64,000 bases of DNA from Treponema sp. Lineage in GTDB: Bacteria; Spirochaetota; Spirochaetia; Treponematales; Breznakiellaceae. The stretch covers positions 84,874 through 148,873 of the forward strand of contig WRMC01000004.1 of the NCBI GenBank assembly GCA_009777335.1, in the 5' to 3' direction. Made by a program: the position numbers and the translations under genes. Every line of letters starts with the position of its first letter. Within the stretch, counting starts at the first letter, position 1. The notes under the pieces are model-generated. The model was not told the origin of the DNA. It made no database searches and saw nothing but the letters and a program-made list of their open reading frames with translations. Positions 9,181 through 64,000 of this stretch are shown here, piece by piece.

Positions 9181-9858
9181 ATGATTGTGTCCATAGCCCG
9201 GGTCAGCGGACATAGACAGCCCAGGGGCCTTTTGGTACCATGGGCCATGAGTCTCTTTTCCTTCCTCTGGATGCCCCTTTTTTATCTTTTCTGGCGTTCC
9301 CTGACGGGGACCAACGAAGCAGCAGGGGGTGTCTGGGGCCTCCTGGTGGGCAGCATAGTGGCCCTGGTGCACTTCTTTCTGGGGGACCTGGTCGATCCCG
9401 GGGGTTTTGGCTTTTCCCGCTGGGCCCATGCCTGGGTCGATGTAATCGCCCTTCCGGTCCTGCTCCCCCTCTTGATCTACCTGCTCCTGGTGCTTTTAAG
9501 GGTCATAGGGGGCACCATAAACTTTGCCAACTTTACCCTTCTCTGGCTCATCCCCGGGGGGGTCATCAAAGCCGCCAGCTGGAGTTCCCTCAATGACCCT
9601 TCCCTCTTAATCCTGGTACCCATCCTCTGGACTGCCATTGCGGTGGGGGTTCCCTTCTTTATCAATATCATTATGAACAGTCAACCCCTGGTCATCGTTT
9701 TTGCGTCCCTGGGGGTTTTGGTCGTCCCCCTGGCAGCGGCCAGCTCCTACTGGGCCTTTTTTTCCCAGAGGCAGCTCATGGGAGCCCTCTTTCTGGCCGC
9801 CGCTGCCATACCCCTTCTGGTCTCGATGGTCTTTTCCGGCCTCAGTGCCGGCGATTAG
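9181..9858 (+). CDS. Hypothetical membrane protein
   Basis: Multiple hydrophobic helices; start uncertain. Confidence 0.55.
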   Translation: MIVSIARVSGHRQPRGLLVPWAMSLFSFLWMPLFYLFWRSLTGTNEAAGGVWGLLVGSIVALVHFFLGDLVDPGGFGFSRWAHAWVDVIALPVLLPLLIYLLLVLLRVIGGTINFANFTLLWLIPGGVIKAASWSSLNDPSLLILVPILWTAIAVGVPFFINIIMNSQPLVIVFASLGVLVVPLAAASSYWAFFSQRQLMGALFLAAAAIPLLVSMVFSGLSAGD

Positions 9859-57221: not shown

Positions 57222-57295
<74 letters not shown>

Positions 57296-57299
57296 TGTG

Positions 57300-57326
57300 C
57301 TAATTCCTTGTAATATAAGGAATTAG
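57300..57326. repeat. Perfect inverted repeat next to tRNA 3' end (attL region)
   Basis: CTAATTCCTT-gtaatat-AAGGAATTAG. Confidence 0.8.
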
Positions 57327-57340
57327 TAAAACTGTATTTT

Positions 57341-57396
57341 AACGAAATAGGAAGGAAGAGCCAATCGTGCACGCATCGTGCACGCATTATTTCGTT
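57341..57396. repeat. Nested inverted/direct repeats upstream of integrase
   Basis: AACGAAAT (57341) pairs with ATTTCGTT (57389); tandem ATCGTGCACGC x2 (57364-57385). Confidence 0.75.
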
Positions 57397-57451
57397 AGGT
57401 GTTAAGTTAGAGGTAAAAACTCTCTCTTTTTCCCTAACCCGGAGTGTGATT

Positions 57452-58684
57452 ATGGCCCTTCCAAAATCCCCATTTAATATCCAAAAAAGGAAAGATTCAA
57501 AGACCTTTCTGCTCACATTAAACAACACCTCGGGGTTGCCTGAGAAGGTATGCAGGAAGTGGCAACGGAGAAGTTACCAGAACCTCCCTCGGGACCTTAT
57601 TCTGTTTTCTCAGCCAAAGAGCTACCAAGCCGCTCAGGCTGGGGCCTTTGCCCTGATAAACTATCTGAAAAACAACCTCAAGAATGAGAGAGCCCAGAAA
57701 GTGGATATAGACGATATAACCGTAGGCGAATGGGTCAAGAAGTTCACGTCCATGGAAACCAGCCCGAGGGCTGCTATAAATGCCTCCCGCAATAGGCCCT
57801 ATTCCATAACCACCATAGAGGGCTATTTATATTATTTCAACCACTATATTAAGAAAGATGCTTTGTCTGCCCTTCTCATGGATGAATTAGAGGAAGAGGA
57901 CATACTGGAATATACCACCAGGTTATCGGGTAGGAAGAATTATAAGGGCCTCCCCCTTGTAGGAACCCGGACCTTTGCGGGGGTGATTATCTTCCTCCGC
58001 ATGGCCTTCAAAGAGTACCAGAAACGGAACAAGCAATGGGTTAACCCTTTCTTGGCTCTGTCCCCGCCTAAGTATCACAACAAAGTCAGAGATGCCCTTA
58101 CCGAAGAAGAGGTTATAAAGCTCTTTATGCCGGGGGTATTGCTTGACCGTATGGAACAGGCGGTATGCTCTGCCATGTTTCTAGCTGGCCTTCGGCGGGC
58201 TGAGATATTCGCCCTAACCCCGGACTGCTTAGACTGGGATACTCCAAAGATAACGGTAAAACAGGCATGGCAGAACTTTGGGAATCGTAATGCTGTGCTA
58301 GGTCCTACCAAGGGTAAGAAGGAACGTGTGGCCCCTTTTAATGACGTATTACAGCAAGCCATCAAGGCCCTCTGGGAAGAGAACGGACAGCATCAATATG
58401 TGTTTTCTTTCGAGAATGGAAAAACCCCAAAATCAGAGTGGTTCAAGCAAAGATTCAAAATATGGTTGAAACGGGCCGGTATAGAACTTAACGGGCGTAA
58501 GATCGTGCCCCATAGTAGCCGTCATTCCTTGGCTTCTATGCTGGAAACAGGCGGGGTTCCACTTAGGCAGATTCAAGAGTTCCTCGGTCATTCGGACCTG
58601 TCAACTACTAAGATCTACCTGCACACCACTGATAAGGCTATACGAGACATTGGGGCTCAGATAAGCACGGCAATAGATGGGTAA
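57452..58684 (+). CDS. int: Phage-type tyrosine integrase
   Basis: 'MFLAGLRRAEIFALTPDCLDWD...VPHSSRHSLASMLETGGVPLRQIQEFLGHSDLSTTKIYLHT'; SD GGAG before ATG 57452. Confidence 0.94.
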   Translation: MALPKSPFNIQKRKDSKTFLLTLNNTSGLPEKVCRKWQRRSYQNLPRDLILFSQPKSYQAAQAGAFALINYLKNNLKNERAQKVDIDDITVGEWVKKFTSMETSPRAAINASRNRPYSITTIEGYLYYFNHYIKKDALSALLMDELEEEDILEYTTRLSGRKNYKGLPLVGTRTFAGVIIFLRMAFKEYQKRNKQWVNPFLALSPPKYHNKVRDALTEEEVIKLFMPGVLLDRMEQAVCSAMFLAGLRRAEIFALTPDCLDWDTPKITVKQAWQNFGNRNAVLGPTKGKKERVAPFNDVLQQAIKALWEENGQHQYVFSFENGKTPKSEWFKQRFKIWLKRAGIELNGRKIVPHSSRHSLASMLETGGVPLRQIQEFLGHSDLSTTKIYLHTTDKAIRDIGAQISTAIDG

Positions 58685-58710
58685 AAGCACCCTACTTATA
58701 TAGAAGAAAA

Positions 58711-58814
58711 CAAGCAAAATCAAGCAACTTCAACCTAAATCAACCTATTTCAACCAAAATCAACCAAGCATTCAACCCATTCAACCAAACTTCAACCTAA
58801 ATTTTGTTTCAACC
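58711..58814. repeat. Helically phased CAACC/CAAGC repeat array (iteron-like)
   Basis: CAAGC/CAACC at 58711, 58721, 58731, 58741, 58751, 58761, 58773, 58782, 58793, 58810. Confidence 0.85.
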
Positions 58815-58906
58815 TAATTGCGTAATAATAATACTAATTATAATTATAAATATAATAATAATGGTAATGGTAAAGCTAGCTTGAAAAAACCACTTTGAAA
58901 ACTTAA

Positions 58907-58928
58907 TGTGGAAAACTTTTGTGGAAAA
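58907..58928. promoter_or_regulatory. Two DnaA-box-like 9-mers
   Basis: TGTGGAAAA at 58907-58915 and 58920-58928 (reverse complement TTTTCCACA fits TTWTNCACA). Confidence 0.5.
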
Positions 58929-59041
58929 CCTAAACCACCACGTTTTTTATTACTCATTAAGATAAACAGAGCGTATATATAGGATTTTGAACCTGAGAGA
59001 GCGTGGGTTTCATGGGTGTATTAAGGCAGTCACCGACCCCT

Positions 59042-59074
59042 AAAAAAAAGGCCCCTATTTGCATAATAAAGGCC
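59042..59074 (-). terminator. Probable terminator for the repressor-nuclease operon (reverse strand)
   Basis: Reverse strand GGCC...ATT...AAT...GGCC hairpin followed by T8. Confidence 0.5.
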
Positions 59075-59156
59075 CTCTGCGGGGTTTTATGCCACGGGGT
59101 AGTGTCATTCACCAAGAAGGGCTTTAGCGGGTCTCTGTGGGGCGTTTTGGGTGTCA

Positions 59157-60194
59157 TTATACGTTTTCCAAGCCATTGAAAATTGTCTTAATTGAATGGG
59201 TGATATCTGAAATGATCACATCTTCCACTACCCCAATTTTAGGAACCAGGGCCATAAAGAGGTAGTTGTTATTTATACCCTGATAAGTTCTGATATTGAG
59301 ATGGGTGGTGATATTTTTAAGTCTTGATTTTAACTCTTCCGGCTGTGACCATGACTTCCCTCCGTATTGCCAGTTAAGCCATAAGGGGGTGTCTGCTCTT
59401 AGTTCCCACATTTTGGTATTTACATCCAAAGCAATGCCATATTTCCCGATTGTCATGTACTTGGTATATCCATATTTTTGTGGGGTAGAACGATAGCCAG
59501 ACATAGTTGAACCGTAATCCGCTTTCAGCCTATCAGCTATTTTGTCCACCAGATCAACATATGAATTACTCCTACGGGCTATTGACGGGTCTAGGTCCCC
59601 ATCCCTAAGCGGCATGAATGAGTAGTTATCAATGACTTCGCAAAAGCCGATTAACTGGTCTACGTCAGATACCAGCAGCCTTTCGTCCCCGTCTGAGAGG
59701 CTATTCCTCAGCGTGGCGAGGATATCCGCCCAGTTAGCGATGAGTATGTATTTATTATGGTCTGTCTTATAAACCCTGTTGCTTAGGTCATACTTTATCC
59801 CGGCACTTCGTAGGCGGGCCTCTATTTCATCCCCCAAAGAATCCATGCGTAGCGTAGGGCAGATGAAGAGCAAGACAGAATCGTCAACGAGCCTTTTCAG
59901 ATATTTATTTGGCTGGTTTTTTGTTAGAGATGACCAGAACTTCGCTTCGATGATAACTTTCTCAGCCCTGTTTGGGTCTATTCCCGATATATCAGGCCGT
60001 TCTTTTTCGTCACCACTGGATTGCGTGATATAGTTTATATTGTCAATCGTGAGCCCAGTTTGGCTGTAATAGAGCCCGCTTAATACCTTTTTAGCAGTAG
60101 CAGAGGCGTTAAGAATATAGACCAAGCCCTCAGAAGCAATATCCTCCTGGGAGCCGATAATTCGTGAAAAGTATTGCCCTAACAATGATGCCAT
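59157..60194 (-). CDS. PD-(D/E)XK-like nuclease-family protein in repressor operon
   Basis: 'KERPDISGIDPNRAEKVIIEAKFWSSLTKNQPNKYLKRLVDDSVLLFICP': PD...EAK signature; same strand as and 29 bp after the XRE gene. Confidence 0.65.
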   Translation of the reverse strand: MASLLGQYFSRIIGSQEDIASEGLVYILNASATAKKVLSGLYYSQTGLTIDNINYITQSSGDEKERPDISGIDPNRAEKVIIEAKFWSSLTKNQPNKYLKRLVDDSVLLFICPTLRMDSLGDEIEARLRSAGIKYDLSNRVYKTDHNKYILIANWADILATLRNSLSDGDERLLVSDVDQLIGFCEVIDNYSFMPLRDGDLDPSIARRSNSYVDLVDKIADRLKADYGSTMSGYRSTPQKYGYTKYMTIGKYGIALDVNTKMWELRADTPLWLNWQYGGKSWSQPEELKSRLKNITTHLNIRTYQGINNNYLFMALVPKIGVVEDVIISDITHSIKTIFNGLENV

Positions 60195-60223
60195 GGGAGC
60201 CTCCGAGTTTTAGTCTCTGTAGA

Positions 60224-60580
60224 TTATGCGGTTTCCGAGCTTGATGAAATGTCGCCCTTTTTTGTGTTATTGAGCTTTAATTGTACGATACCAAGGATTT
60301 CATTTTGATCCCGATTGTCTAAGACCCGGAACCCAGTAAGCAGGTTTCGTTCATCCTCAGATAGATCATCAGCATTTTTACCCGTCAATAAATAATCAAC
60401 CGATACGCCAAGGAACACCGCTACTTTATGCAGGGTGTATGCACTCGGCTCTCTGCCTCTGTTCTTCCAGTTTGATAAAGTACCCGAAGGAACGATCTTA
60501 TAAAGGTCGATTCTCTTAAGGCCCTTCCCGTCAATTTCCCTCCCTATTCTAGCCACCAATTCAGTACCTAAAATAGCCAT
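60224..60580 (-). CDS. XRE-family HTH (CI-like) repressor
   Basis: 'DLYKIVPSGTLSNWKNRGREPSAYTLHKVAVFLGVSVDYLLTGK'. Confidence 0.9.
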   Translation of the reverse strand: MAILGTELVARIGREIDGKGLKRIDLYKIVPSGTLSNWKNRGREPSAYTLHKVAVFLGVSVDYLLTGKNADDLSEDERNLLTGFRVLDNRDQNEILGIVQLKLNNTKKGDISSSSETA

Positions 60581-60645
60581 GTTCTAAGTATCGGCTATTA
60601 TCTTCGGAAAAGCAAAGTTTTTTGTTAAAAAATCTAAAAAAAGGC

Positions 60646-60674
60646 TTGACAATCTTTATATATTAAGATATAAT
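60646..60674 (+). promoter_or_regulatory. Perfect sigma70 consensus promoter
   Basis: TTGACA-17 bp-TATAAT. Confidence 0.9.
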
Positions 60675-60682
60675 AAAGCATG

Positions 60683-60702
60683 AACCTTAATTTATTAAGG
60701 TT
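60683..60702. promoter_or_regulatory. Candidate operator / 5' UTR hairpin
   Basis: Perfect inverted repeat AACCTTAAT-TT-ATTAAGGTT just after the -10. Confidence 0.65.
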
Positions 60703-60717
60703 TCTATATAGATTTTT

Positions 60718-60818
60718 CCAGCGGGAAGCTGGAGAACCCCTGCCACCAAGGGGGCAAGAAGAGGGCAGAAATAGCCGGATCCTTTGGTGGAGGTGAAGGC
60801 TATTCCTGCTCTTTTTTT
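60718..60818 (+). ncRNA. Structured leader RNA ending in intrinsic terminator
   Basis: CCAGC-gggaa-GCTGG; CCCCT-gccacca-AGGGG; AGAGGGCAGAAATAGCC.../GGCTATTCCTGCTCT + T7; loop CCACCA complementary to TGGTGG in terminator loop. Confidence 0.6.
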
Positions 60819-60832
60819 CGGAGGTAAAAGCA

Positions 60833-61102
60833 ATGCCAATGGACATGAGGTACAGCCAAGGATACAAAGACGCTCTATTCGATGTGATGCAGTGGTTTGA
60901 GGGAGCCTCCCAAGATACGCTGGTGTTCCCCAAAAAGACAGCCCGGATGCTCATGGTGATATTGCGGAGGATCTATCAAGACCGAAACCTGTTCGCCGTG
61001 CAAAAGCTCGATTACGAATTCACCTACACGGTTTTTGAAAAAGAGGAAATCAAGGGAGGGGAGAAAAAAGAAAAAAATCAAAAAAAAAGAATAAAAAAAT
61101 AA
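60833..61102 (+). CDS. Hypothetical phage early protein with Lys-rich tail
   Basis: SD CGGAGG 60819-60824; ATG 60833. Confidence 0.65.
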   Translation: MPMDMRYSQGYKDALFDVMQWFEGASQDTLVFPKKTARMLMVILRRIYQDRNLFAVQKLDYEFTYTVFEKEEIKGGEKKEKNQKKRIKK

Positions 61103-61109
61103 ACTTTTT

Positions 61110-61194
61110 TTATAAAAAAGACTTGACAAACTATAACGGGTACGATATAATAAAACATATAGGAAATTGAAAATCCTATAAAAAAACATGAAGG
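61110..61194 (+). repeat. 85-bp direct repeat, copy 1, carrying a promoter
   Basis: Identical to 63916-64000; contains TTGACA (61123)-17 bp-TATAAT (61146) and ATAGGA...TCCTAT inverted repeat. Confidence 0.97.
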
Positions 61195-61204
61195 AAGGAA
61201 GAAC

Positions 61205-61423
61205 ATGGAGAAAGCAATTACGATTAACGGAACCGAGTTTTCTTACACCCTAACCAAGAAAAAGTATTCTACGCACATAGCATACGAAAACAATGGAGTA
61301 AGTGGAGAATCACTCCTTCGCCGAGGTGCGGATGATTTTGATGCTTACAAACTCTTTCGGGGAATCCTGGGGATATATACAACCAGTGATTTTAACAACC
61401 TAGGAAAAAGAGGAAGAATATGA
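61205..61423 (+). CDS. Hypothetical protein
   Basis: SD GAAGGAAGG, downstream of consensus promoter. Confidence 0.7.
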   Translation: MEKAITINGTEFSYTLTKKKYSTHIAYENNGVSGESLLRRGADDFDAYKLFRGILGIYTTSDFNNLGKRGRI

Positions 61424-61851
61424 GCAACCACATACCATTTGAAGTTCAACCGAAAGCAGGGGATAAAGCAAGGATGTATTCATGGGATACCGGGGATGTT
61501 ACAGAAATTGGAACCGTGATCGTGAGAGGTGATCAATCCATTGAAGGCCACACCGGGCTATTACTTCCTGATGGGGAAGCAATATGGGAAGGCGACAGGC
61601 AAGGCTTAGTTGAAGCAGAACTCATTAACTGGTTAGACGAAGAGTGGGACCAGGATTATGAAGAGATGGTCAAGTACCTGCCAGCAAAAGGTGAAGAAGT
61701 AATATGCAATATCTTTGGGACCCTCCAAGTGGGAACCGTTGAAGAAATAAAAGCAGACAAAATAACCGTCAGCCTGGAGAACGGAATCAAGACGGATGTT
61801 GAACATTACATGAAGCGGAAATACCAGCTAGAAAGGGAGGCCGTTGAGTGA
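61420..61851 (+). CDS. Hypothetical protein
   Basis: ATGA-coupled to upstream ORF. Confidence 0.7.
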   Translation: MSNHIPFEVQPKAGDKARMYSWDTGDVTEIGTVIVRGDQSIEGHTGLLLPDGEAIWEGDRQGLVEAELINWLDEEWDQDYEEMVKYLPAKGEEVICNIFGTLQVGTVEEIKADKITVSLENGIKTDVEHYMKRKYQLEREAVE

Positions 61852-62063
61852 TCACTAAAGAATGGCTTAAAGACCAAATTGAACGCCTTACAATCCTTGA
61901 AATAGATGCAGAACAGCAATTGAAAGAAGCAGAGCGTGAATCAATGTGTGCCAAGGTAAATTTACGGGTTGCTGGAGCTAGAGTAAAGGAATTGGAATGC
62001 GTGAAGCAGGAATTGACGTGGCAGTTGGAACGTATGTCTAAGGAGGGTTCGACTGAAGCATGA
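61848..62063 (+). CDS. Small coiled-coil hypothetical protein
   Basis: Overlaps upstream stop; 'QIERLTILEIDAEQQLKEAERESMCAKVNLRVAGARVKELE'. Confidence 0.65.
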   Translation: MITKEWLKDQIERLTILEIDAEQQLKEAERESMCAKVNLRVAGARVKELECVKQELTWQLERMSKEGSTEA

Positions 62064-62206
62064 AATCAGAGTATTGCGAGATTAGCCTTAATGAAAGGGT
62101 GGGTGTCGTCCCAAATGAAGATTGTCAGGTCTTCCGAACGTACTCAGCGGTACGGATCTCGCTACCTACACAAAAAAGATGCAAGCCTGTGAGTAGGACG
62201 CTATGA
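62060..62206 (+). CDS. 48-aa hypothetical protein (below ORF-track cutoff)
   Basis: ATGA overlap with previous stop; translates MKSEYCEISLNERVGVVPNEDCQVFRTYSAVRISLPTQKRCKPVSRTL. Confidence 0.45.
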   Translation: MKSEYCEISLNERVGVVPNEDCQVFRTYSAVRISLPTQKRCKPVSRTL

Positions 62207-62298
62207 GAGCAGGGCACTGAGTTGTCGCACTGGTGCAGGGGATGTTGAGCCCCTCAAGTGGCATTGTAGGTATCAATTGGTTGGAAAGAGAGGGGAGT

Positions 62299-62565
62299 AT
62301 GAGTAGTCAAGTGACTGGAAGTGAACTAGGAATTGGTAACATTCGTGGTCATCTCGTCAGCGTTAAAGATGTCGCAGAGCTGTTGAATATCAGCAAGCGA
62401 CTGGTTTACAGGAGGTTGAAAGAGAACAAGTTCCCCATCCCTATCTACGTTATAGGCCCCCGGAACAGGGGCGTTGATTCTGCGGATCTTGATGAATGGC
62501 TGGGGAAAGTCAGCGGTAAAGAGAATGTGGAGAAACCACGAAAGACAGTTCGGCGTAAAAAGTAG
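62299..62565 (+). CDS. Excisionase/MerR-like HTH protein
   Basis: 'HLVSVKDVAELLNISKRLVYRRLKENKFPIPIYVIGPRNRGVDSADLDEWLGK'; SD GAGGGGAG before ATG 62299. Confidence 0.8.
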   Translation: MSSQVTGSELGIGNIRGHLVSVKDVAELLNISKRLVYRRLKENKFPIPIYVIGPRNRGVDSADLDEWLGKVSGKENVEKPRKTVRRKK

Positions 62566-62588
62566 ATGGAATTGGCTGGGAGGACATA

Positions 62589-63005
62589 TTGAGGACAGTG
62601 TTAGATATCTTTGTAGAAGGAATCCCGAAAGCCCAGCCAAGACATCGCACTACGAAAACGGGTCATATCTATACCCCTAACACCGCCAAAGAGTGGAAGG
62701 ATGCTATAGCAATGACAATCTATGAACAGGGGTATGGGTCCCTTGTATTGGATGAACCAGTGAAGTTGTTTGCGTGTTTCTATTTTCCTATGCCAAAAAA
62801 GTATGGGAAAAGGTTTAAGGAAGGGTTACCCCATATCGTGAAGCCTGATAGTGACAATTTGTTAAAGGCCGTAATGGATTGCATGACCCAGGCTCGGGTA
62901 TGGCGTGACGATTCAATTGTTTTTGATTCGAGGGCTACCAAGTGGTACACCCATGGTGCAACTGGGGCAAGGATTAAAGCCGAAGTGTGGGAGGGAAGTG
63001 GATGA
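62589..63005 (+). CDS. rusA: RusA-family Holliday junction resolvase
   Basis: 'IFVEGIPKAQPRHRTTKTGHIYTPNTAKEWKDAI...PHIVKPDSDNLLKAVMDCMTQARVWRDDSIV'; TTG start. Confidence 0.9.
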   Translation: MRTVLDIFVEGIPKAQPRHRTTKTGHIYTPNTAKEWKDAIAMTIYEQGYGSLVLDEPVKLFACFYFPMPKKYGKRFKEGLPHIVKPDSDNLLKAVMDCMTQARVWRDDSIVFDSRATKWYTHGATGARIKAEVWEGSG

Positions 63006-63112
63006 AGTATCTTGTCGGCGGTTTAATTATCGCCGGAATTATTTGGCTGGTATGTGTCTGGCTTTTTAACAATGTTAAGCGGTGGAGATTCATGAAGCGT
63101 AAAAAAAAGTGA
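63002..63112 (+). CDS. 36-aa single-pass membrane protein
   Basis: ATGA overlap with rusA; MKYLVGGLIIAGIIWLVCVWLFNNVKRWRFMKRKKK. Confidence 0.55.
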   Translation: MKYLVGGLIIAGIIWLVCVWLFNNVKRWRFMKRKKK

Positions 63113-63122
63113 TGGGTGTTAA

Positions 63123-63591
63123 ACGGTGACTTACTAACACTTAAAAATAGTAACGGCACCGTGACAGCCTGGAGAGACAGGCAACTTGGAACGGGCCTAG
63201 TAGGTAGGACAGTGGGCTTATCTTCCTTTCCCCGCTGGGCAGGTCATGCTGTCCCGTTCCCCGACCCGTGCAGGGATAGGCTCTGGATGGGTTAGGTACC
63301 ATGGTCCCCTCCCAATCAAATCAGGGCCATGGTGCTTAGGTTCAAATTACTAGAAGTCGAAAGCAACGCCAAGGGATGTGAATGTATTCCTTTGGGGTTA
63401 TCCGTTGACTGATGCACGAATTCCAGGTTAGGCATCAGCCCAGGTTGCAACAGGTCGCAAGTTATTGCAATTAAGTTGCAACCCAGGTGCGGAACTGGTG
63501 CGAGTAGGTGCAGACAAATGGTTTAGGCGGTTTGCCCGTTGGGTCTTCCGCCTCGCAGGTTCAATTCCTGCGGGTCTGCATATCTTTTTTT
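63123..63591 (+). ncRNA. Candidate large structured noncoding RNA
   Basis: Chain of hairpins with no convincing ORF: ACGGTG/CACCGT, GCCTG/CAGGC, GGAACGGG/CCCGTTCC, ACCATGG(t)CCC/GGGCCATGGT, CTGATGC/GCATCAG, GGTTGCAAC/GTTGCAACC, ending in tRNA-like fold and T7. Confidence 0.55.
63509..63580 (+). tRNA. tRNA-like structure / degenerate tRNA, isotype undetermined
   Basis: TGCAGAC/GTCTGCA acceptor-like stem and canonical T-arm GCAGG-TTCAATT-CCTGC; no standard anticodon arm (GGCGG/CCGCC with 17-nt interior). Confidence 0.45.
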
Positions 63592-63605
63592 AGTGGAGGG
63601 ATGTT

Positions 63606-63887
63606 ATGGAATCATCTATTTTCGGAGCAGTAAGAAAGACCTTTGATATGTACCCCATGAATCATGAGTTTAGTTTGTGGGACTTAAAAGGCAATGTGTT
63701 CCGGCTTTACCCCAAGTCGAAGCATACCCATGGCGATACGATATGTCGCCGATTGCGGGAGGCCCGGCATGGTGATGGGTATGAGATTGTCTGCATCAAG
63801 AGACCGATTGGCAGATATAAAAAAATCAAGGTTGCCAAATTAGCAGACCACGAAAAAAAGTTAGATTCGAAAAGAAAAAACCAGTAA
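63606..63887 (+). CDS. Hypothetical, winged-helix-like small protein
   Basis: SD GGAGGG; 'FSLWDLKGNVFRLYPKSKHTHGDTICRRLREARHGDGYEIVCIKRPIGRYKKI'. Confidence 0.6.
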   Translation: MESSIFGAVRKTFDMYPMNHEFSLWDLKGNVFRLYPKSKHTHGDTICRRLREARHGDGYEIVCIKRPIGRYKKIKVAKLADHEKKLDSKRKNQ

Positions 63888-63915
63888 AAAAACTTTACAA
63901 AAAAATTAAAAAAAA

Positions 63916-64000
63916 TTATAAAAAAGACTTGACAAACTATAACGGGTACGATATAATAAAACATATAGGAAATTGAAAATCCTATAAAAAAACATGAAGG
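63916..64000 (+). repeat. 85-bp direct repeat, copy 2, carrying a promoter
   Basis: Identical to 61110-61194; may extend past window end. Confidence 0.97.

What the first reader, a model, noticed from the sequence alone, without database searches (positions are those of the whole stretch)
63123..63591. ~470-nt gene-free, hairpin-dense locus: candidate large phage-borne noncoding RNA ending in a tRNA-like structure
Seen: consecutive stems ACGGTG/CACCGT, GCCTG/CAGGC, GGAACGGG (63188)/CCCGTTCC (63253) enclosing ACAG/CTGT, ACCATGG-CCC (63298)/GGG-CCATGGT (63324), CTGATGC (63409)/GCATCAG (63432) and GGTTGCAAC/GTTGCAACC, then a tRNA-like domain and T7. No credible CDS covers it in a region that is otherwise packed with small genes. 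Established: phages and prophages carry large ornate RNAs (GOLLD, ROOL), often near tRNAs. Inference: this is a member of, or analogous to, such a class.
Basis: partly seen in the sequence, partly recalled or inferred. Interest (0 to 1): 0.75.

Follow-up and report, generated by a model that had tools for sequence, protein, structure and literature searches.

The report
Spirochaete prophage RNA with tRNA-like end
A gene-free stretch of about 470 bases in the early region of a spirochaete prophage encodes a new, evolutionarily conserved structured RNA that carries a tRNA-shaped fold without an anticodon; it belongs to no catalogued RNA family and its function is unknown.

Summary
Window 63113-63591 is free of credible genes, contains every stem named, and is the most over-folded of 134 windows of its length (z -4.5). 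The decisive evidence is a homologue: a covariance model built from the window sequence alone finds one in a prophage of Treponema sp. MAG Gx481_bin92 (50 bits, E 4.6e-11). The two RNAs share six motifs in the same order and follow the same small-protein gene. In the core alignment 7 of 25 pairs changed on both sides and stayed paired, against 0-2 when partners are slid. The 3' module has a canonical T-loop and an acceptor/T-arm stack but no anticodon loop; it is neither tRNA nor tmRNA. No Rfam family matches, GOLLD, ROOL, HEARO and OLE included. Genes downstream are unrelated in the two prophages, which argues against a dedicated leader. Most likely this is a new family of trans-acting phage RNA, cut out of the early transcript at its tRNA-like end. 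Transcription and function are untested, and only two members are known.

The parts
57222..57295 (+). tRNA-Met, left attachment site of the prophage; a near-identical copy lies at the right end (G000:C3:54064-54137)
   Evidence: (86 bp, 95%)
57446..58684 (+). tyrosine integrase of the prophage
61123..61151 (+). perfect TTGACA-17-TATAAT promoter, the nearest strong promoter upstream of the RNA (early operon)
   Evidence: consensus match only
62302..62562 (+). excisionase-like HTH protein, homologue in the Gx481 prophage (36%, E 1e-15)
62589..63005 (+). RusA-like Holliday junction resolvase (a NinG protein takes this place in the Gx481 prophage)
62987..63112 (+). 41-aa membrane protein directly upstream of the RNA, homologue in the same place in the Gx481 prophage (44%, E 1e-5)
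63113..63591 (+). structured RNA locus (transcript ends not determined)
63123..63182 (+). 5' hairpins ACGGTG/CACCGT and GCCTG/CAGGC, not recognised in the homologue
63188..63260 (+). P1 GGAACGGG/CCCGTTCC enclosing P2a (CCTA/TAGG), P2b CAGTGGG/CCCGCTG with conserved TAGGACAG and a CCTTT-bearing loop, and a GCAG/CTGT hairpin
   Evidence: P1 one and P2b two double changes
63300..63331 (+). P3 hairpin CATGGTCC/GGGCCATG with conserved loop CCTCCCAA
   Evidence: four double changes in eight pairs
63357..63392 (+). conserved TCGAAAGC and P4 hairpin AAGGGAT/ATTCCTT
   Evidence: four double changes in seven pairs
63402..63406 (+). conserved CCGTT, possible partner of GCGGA at 63489-63493 (inferred, invariant)
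63409..63438 (+). P5 hairpin CTGATGC/GCATCAG with conserved loop ACGAAnTCCAGGTYAG
   Evidence: three double changes
63443..63483 (+). hairpin GGTTGCAAC/GTTGCAACC, specific to this member (absent from the homologue)
63487..63511 (+). most conserved stretch GTGCGGAAnTGG..GAGTAGGTGC just before the tRNA-like domain
63509..63580 (+). tRNA-like domain: acceptor TGCAGAC/GTCTGCA, D-loop-like AAATGGTTT without stem, extended arm AGGCGG..CCGCCT in place of the anticodon arm, T-arm CGCAGG-TTCAATT-CCTGCG
   Evidence: no ARAGORN call (3)
63585..63591 (+). T7 tract after the tRNA-like domain, possible weak terminator (not scored as a terminator)
63606..63887 (+). 93-aa protein of unknown family downstream, no homologue in the Gx481 prophage

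Best explanation
Shown: the locus encodes a structured RNA under selection for base pairing, present in at least two prophages of different spirochaete genera, with a 3' module that has the acceptor/T-arm half of a tRNA but no anticodon loop. Inferred: it is transcribed in the prophage's early operon (promoter at 61123), its tRNA-like module folds as an elbow that host RNase P (and perhaps RNase Z and the CCA enzyme) recognises, and cleavage or end-protection there releases and stabilises the RNA body, which then acts in trans as a free RNA during prophage induction. What the body binds is not known; ribosomes or the tRNA machinery are the first candidates because of the tRNA mimicry. Rough probabilities: real conserved structured RNA 0.93; acts as an RNA separate from its neighbours 0.65; tRNA-like module serves processing or stability 0.45.
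For: Folding excess, best of 134 windows, sense strand favoured. A model built from the window alone finds the Gx481 prophage locus with E 4.6e-11 among 170 kb, and as the only other hit in 203 genomes of the family. Six motifs in the same order in both. 7 of 25 pairs with compensatory changes, at least one in each of four helices, against 0-2 when partners are slid; 18 of 57 when five hand-matched 5' helices are added. Same position: after an excisionase-like gene, a Holliday junction resolvase gene (RusA or NinG) and a homologous small membrane protein. Downstream genes not homologous, so no fixed cis target. T-loop TTCAATT/TTCGATC and a GG-bearing D-loop-like segment in both.
Against: Only two members; no transcript data. 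The homologue's tRNA-like domain is not the minimum-energy fold on its own (z +1.0), and its whole locus has z of only -1.9. CM E-values are rough, the A7 alignment used trimmed sequences, and the 5' helices were matched by hand. RNase P processing rests on shape only. No promoter of its own was found.
Confidence: 0.6

Rival explanations
1. Cis-acting element of the early operon: a long leader, attenuator or put-like antitermination RNA that controls transcription into the genes downstream; the tRNA-like domain plus T7 would be the switchable terminator.
For: It sits inside an operon with a T7 tract at its end and no promoter of its own before the next gene. In the homologue a hairpin with T6/A6 follows it.
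Against: The genes just downstream are unrelated in the two prophages. It is far larger than known phage antitermination RNAs (general knowledge) and lies about 2 kb behind the promoter.
Confidence: 0.22
2. Remains of a phage tRNA cluster: decayed tRNA genes with chance hairpins between them.
For: The T-arm half is a good tRNA T-arm, weak BLAST similarity is to phage tRNA-Ser/Leu T-arms, and the homologue has a second tRNA-like fold at its 5' end.
Against: Decay does not keep pairs through so many double changes, nor long identical loops outside the tRNA-like part. No D stem or anticodon loop remains, though acceptor and T-stem are maintained.
Confidence: 0.07
3. A DNA-level element such as a replication origin, operator array or recombination site, read as hairpins by chance of its palindromes.
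For: GTTGCAAC is its own complement and near-copies recur about every 10-11 nt at 63443-63483 (sequence).
Against: That hairpin is absent from the homologue. Conserved loops, G-T pairs kept in stems, and a stronger fold on one strand point to RNA.
Confidence: 0.05
4. An overlooked small protein gene.
For: ORFs of 59 aa (63116) and 142 aa (L059) exist in or across the loci.
Against: No Pfam match above cut-off, no consistent shared frame between the two loci (best E 0.009 in a 26-residue stretch), and stops in every frame.
Confidence: 0.02

Closest known systems
GOLLD RNA (Rfam; PMC12286853)
   Same: Large structured RNA of phages and prophages; associated with tRNAs, some members carry a tRNA in a linker.
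   Different: No Rfam match at E 5; about 480 nt instead of often over 800; here the tRNA-like module lacks an anticodon loop and lies at the 3' end.
ROOL RNA (Rfam; PMC12286853)
   Same: Phage and prophage RNA of several hundred nt, often near tRNA islands, function unknown.
   Different: No Rfam match at E 5; the prophage has no tRNA island.
tmRNA tRNA-like domain (RF00023)
   Same: Acceptor and T-arm with a D-loop that has no stem, and a long helix in place of the anticodon arm (from general knowledge of tmRNA).
   Different: No match for this locus in Rfam or ARAGORN; the two halves of the tRNA-like domain are adjacent here, with no tag reading frame or pseudoknot chain between them.
tRNA-Sec (RF01852)
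   Same: Best, though sub-threshold, Rfam resemblance of the tRNA-like domains: 22.5 bits here, 20.5 and 16.8 bits in the homologue.
   Different: Far below the gathering score of 47; no anticodon loop.
T4 stable RNAs C and D; MALAT1-type tRNA-like 3' ends (from memory, leads only)
   Same: Non-tRNA RNAs made or stabilised with a tRNA-like processing signal.
   Different: Not compared by sequence here.

Membership tests
GOLLD | match to the family's covariance model (conserved 3' region) | tested here: not met
   Searches (gathering; E up to 5), for the homologue
GOLLD | encoded in phage or prophage, often beside tRNAs | tested here: met
   prophage shown by att repeats and integrase; only a tRNA-like domain and the att tRNA-Met, no tRNA island
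GOLLD | forms homo-oligomeric nanocages | not testable with these tools
   needs cryo-EM or native gels
ROOL | match to the family's covariance model | tested here: not met
HEARO / OLE | match to the family's covariance model | tested here: not met
tRNA | cloverleaf with anticodon loop, found by ARAGORN or RF00005 | tested here: not met
tRNA | acceptor stem, T-arm with T-loop consensus | tested here: met
tmRNA | tRNA-like domain split by a tag-coding domain; Rfam/ARAGORN match | tested here: not met
tRNA-Sec | RF01852 score at or above 47 bits | tested here: not met
   22.5 bits
new family (this RNA plus the Gx481 homologue) | six ordered motifs and covarying P1-P5 and tRNA-like stems | tested here: met
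   two members only
structured RNA conserved by R-scape-type statistics | significant covariation over many homologues | tested here: inconclusive
   two sequences only; 7 of 25 double changes, slid control 0-2, 3 of 500 shuffles as high

The most novel reading that the evidence does not exclude
A new class of spirochaete-phage RNA whose tRNA-like modules (one or two per RNA) mimic tRNA without an anticodon to capture host tRNA-handling machinery or to evade tRNA-targeting phage defences, with the conserved body forming an RNA-only or ribosome-bound particle in the manner of GOLLD/ROOL.
Probability: 0.12. Interest if true: 0.85.

Novelty: new variant of a known kind. Interest (0 to 1): 0.56.

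Why it matters
Large structured phage RNAs are few and their functions are open questions. This adds a family that is absent from Rfam, comes from spirochaete prophages, and is built around a tRNA-like module without an anticodon. That module gives a concrete handle (RNase P, CCA addition, ribosome or tRNA-nuclease binding) for testing what such RNAs do.

Tried and rejected
DNA similarity: phages, plasmids, and 101, 297 and 395 related genomes gave only chance matches. Model R1 on 151 genomes: weak hits; the ones inspected lie in coding or unrelated DNA, and all were rejected. Pattern scans of viral contigs with tRNA-like loops and with the conserved motifs: all chance or coding. Weak CM hits L157-L161 (17-21 bits): L157 seems to be an intergenic stretch before a ribosomal protein gene without the motifs, and L158's alignment lacks the tRNA-like part; L159-L161 were judged by score only. 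The flanking protein as bait in viral contigs and relatives: none. A shared 8-mer chain test between the two loci was not decisive (54 identical bases; mean 24 and largest 59 in 1000 shuffles), so homology rests on the CM score, motif order, synteny and compensatory changes. Considered and dropped: a hammerhead-like CUGAUG..GAA in the window (not kept in the homologue); group I intron and RNase P RNA (no Rfam match). A supposed 1-kb gene-free gap on C3 (7280-8300) turned out to hold small ORFs.

Full report
What is there. The window is G000:C4:84874-148873 and ends at the contig end. From 57222 on it is a prophage: tRNA-Met, integrase, repressor-like gene and small genes behind perfect sigma-70-type promoters at 60646, 61123 and 63929. 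The contig breaks in a 149-nt promoter repeat. The first 88 bases of C3 match the C4 end at 98.9%, and a second copy of tRNA-Met lies at C3:54064-54137. The prophage is therefore about 61 kb and apparently complete; the C4-C3 join is inferred from the repeat. Its terminase is closest, among phage records, to those of Leptospira phages LE3/LE4 (37%). A related prophage lies in a genome whose record is titled Treponema sp. and which belongs to the same family as the window's genome, so the host is most likely a spirochaete.

The observation. All named stems are present. The 479-nt stretch folds far better than shuffles (z -4.5) and its excess is larger than that of every other window of this length in the 64 kb. 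The sense strand folds better than its complement relative to shuffles. No reading frame crosses it and no protein family matches.

The homologue. Searches at DNA level found nothing in phages, plasmids or several hundred related genomes. The route that worked was to take prophages with a related Sak4-like ATPase, fetch the DNA around it and look again. On the minus strand of L059 (G293:C120; contig length and sequence agree with JAISCR010000192.1, MAG Treponema sp. Gx481_bin92) the motifs TAGGACAG, CCTCCCAA, TCGAAAGC, ACGAAnTCCAGGTnAG, GTGCGGAAnTGG and GAGTAGGTGC occur in the same order as in the window. A model made from the window alone (R2, 63402-63580 without one hairpin) scores this locus at 50 bits, E 4.6e-11, and finds no other in 203 genomes of the family. 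Surveys of 197 genomes of a sister family, 23 of another, and 231 across the phylum found no further convincing member.

Compensatory changes. In the ungapped core alignment (61% identical) all 25 pairs form in the window and 21 in the homologue, and 7 pairs differ on both sides yet still pair; sliding the partners gives 0-2. Five more helices in the 5' part (P1, P2a, P2b, P3, P4), matched by hand, bring the count to 53 of 57 pairs held in the homologue and 18 double changes. The hand matching is a selection and inflates that second figure; the first is safer, though it too rests on trimmed sequences. The two loci also share position: excisionase-like gene (36%), Holliday junction resolvase (RusA in one, NinG in the other), a small membrane protein (44%), then the RNA. 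The genes directly after the RNA are not related.

The tRNA-like module. 63509-63580 has a 7-bp acceptor stem, a D-loop-like AAATGGTTT with two G but no stem, an extended arm where the anticodon arm should be, and a 6-bp T-arm with the loop TTCAATT. The homologue keeps the T-arm, the AATGGT segment and a weaker acceptor, and has a longer middle arm. Neither is a tRNA for ARAGORN or Rfam. The best sub-threshold resemblance is tRNA-Sec. In the homologue there is a second tRNA-like fold at the 5' end (6692-6629), and the RNA seems to run about 100 nt past the module to a T6 tract. A third related prophage (L061) has a gene-free, hairpin-rich stretch that begins with a tRNA-like fold with a GAAA tetraloop in place of the anticodon loop, but has none of the six motifs; it may be the same idea with a different RNA.

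How it may work. Shown: a structured RNA under selection for pairing. Inferred: transcription in the early operon, release at the tRNA-like module by host tRNA-processing enzymes, and action in trans. A cis-acting role is less likely because the downstream genes are not conserved, but it is not excluded. The target of the RNA is unknown.

Placing. It resembles GOLLD and ROOL in being a large, ornate prophage RNA with a tRNA connection (PMC12286853), but fails their sequence-structure models. It is best filed as a new family of the known kind 'large structured phage RNA', not as a member of either.

Noticed in passing
window 57222 to 64000, and G000:C3:1-54137: Apparently complete ~61-kb spirochaete prophage integrated at tRNA-Met with duplicated tRNA; split over two contigs at a promoter repeat.
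   Followed up: partly
window 61046-61194 and 63852-64000; G000:C3:1-88 and 9219-9338: A promoter block with perfect TTGACA-17-TATAAT repeated nearly identically (83-99%) at three or four places in one prophage, each before a new gene set.
   Followed up: partly
L059 6692-6629 (minus strand): Second tRNA-like fold, GGGGAGC..GCTCCCC with a TTCGATT T-loop, at the 5' end of the homologous RNA locus; no counterpart found in the window.
   Followed up: partly
L061 5690-6035: Related prophage with a gene-free hairpin-rich stretch (z -2.2) starting with a tRNA-like fold that has a GAAA tetraloop instead of an anticodon loop; its T-arm matches tmRNA at 16.7 bits (below cut-off).
   Followed up: partly
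L003 3024-3094: IMG/VR phage contig with a RusA relative carries a tRNA for which ARAGORN gives a four-base anticodon (cgta), i.e. an enlarged anticodon loop.
   Followed up: no
window 60681-60840: Leader between the promoter at 60646 and the gene at 60833 folds well (z about -4) and may be another regulatory RNA.
   Followed up: no
window 58707-58802: Array of short TCAACCT-type repeats just after the integrase gene.
   Followed up: no
window 63443-63483: Self-complementary GTTGCAAC and near-copies spaced about one helical turn apart; could also be a protein-binding array in DNA.
   Followed up: no
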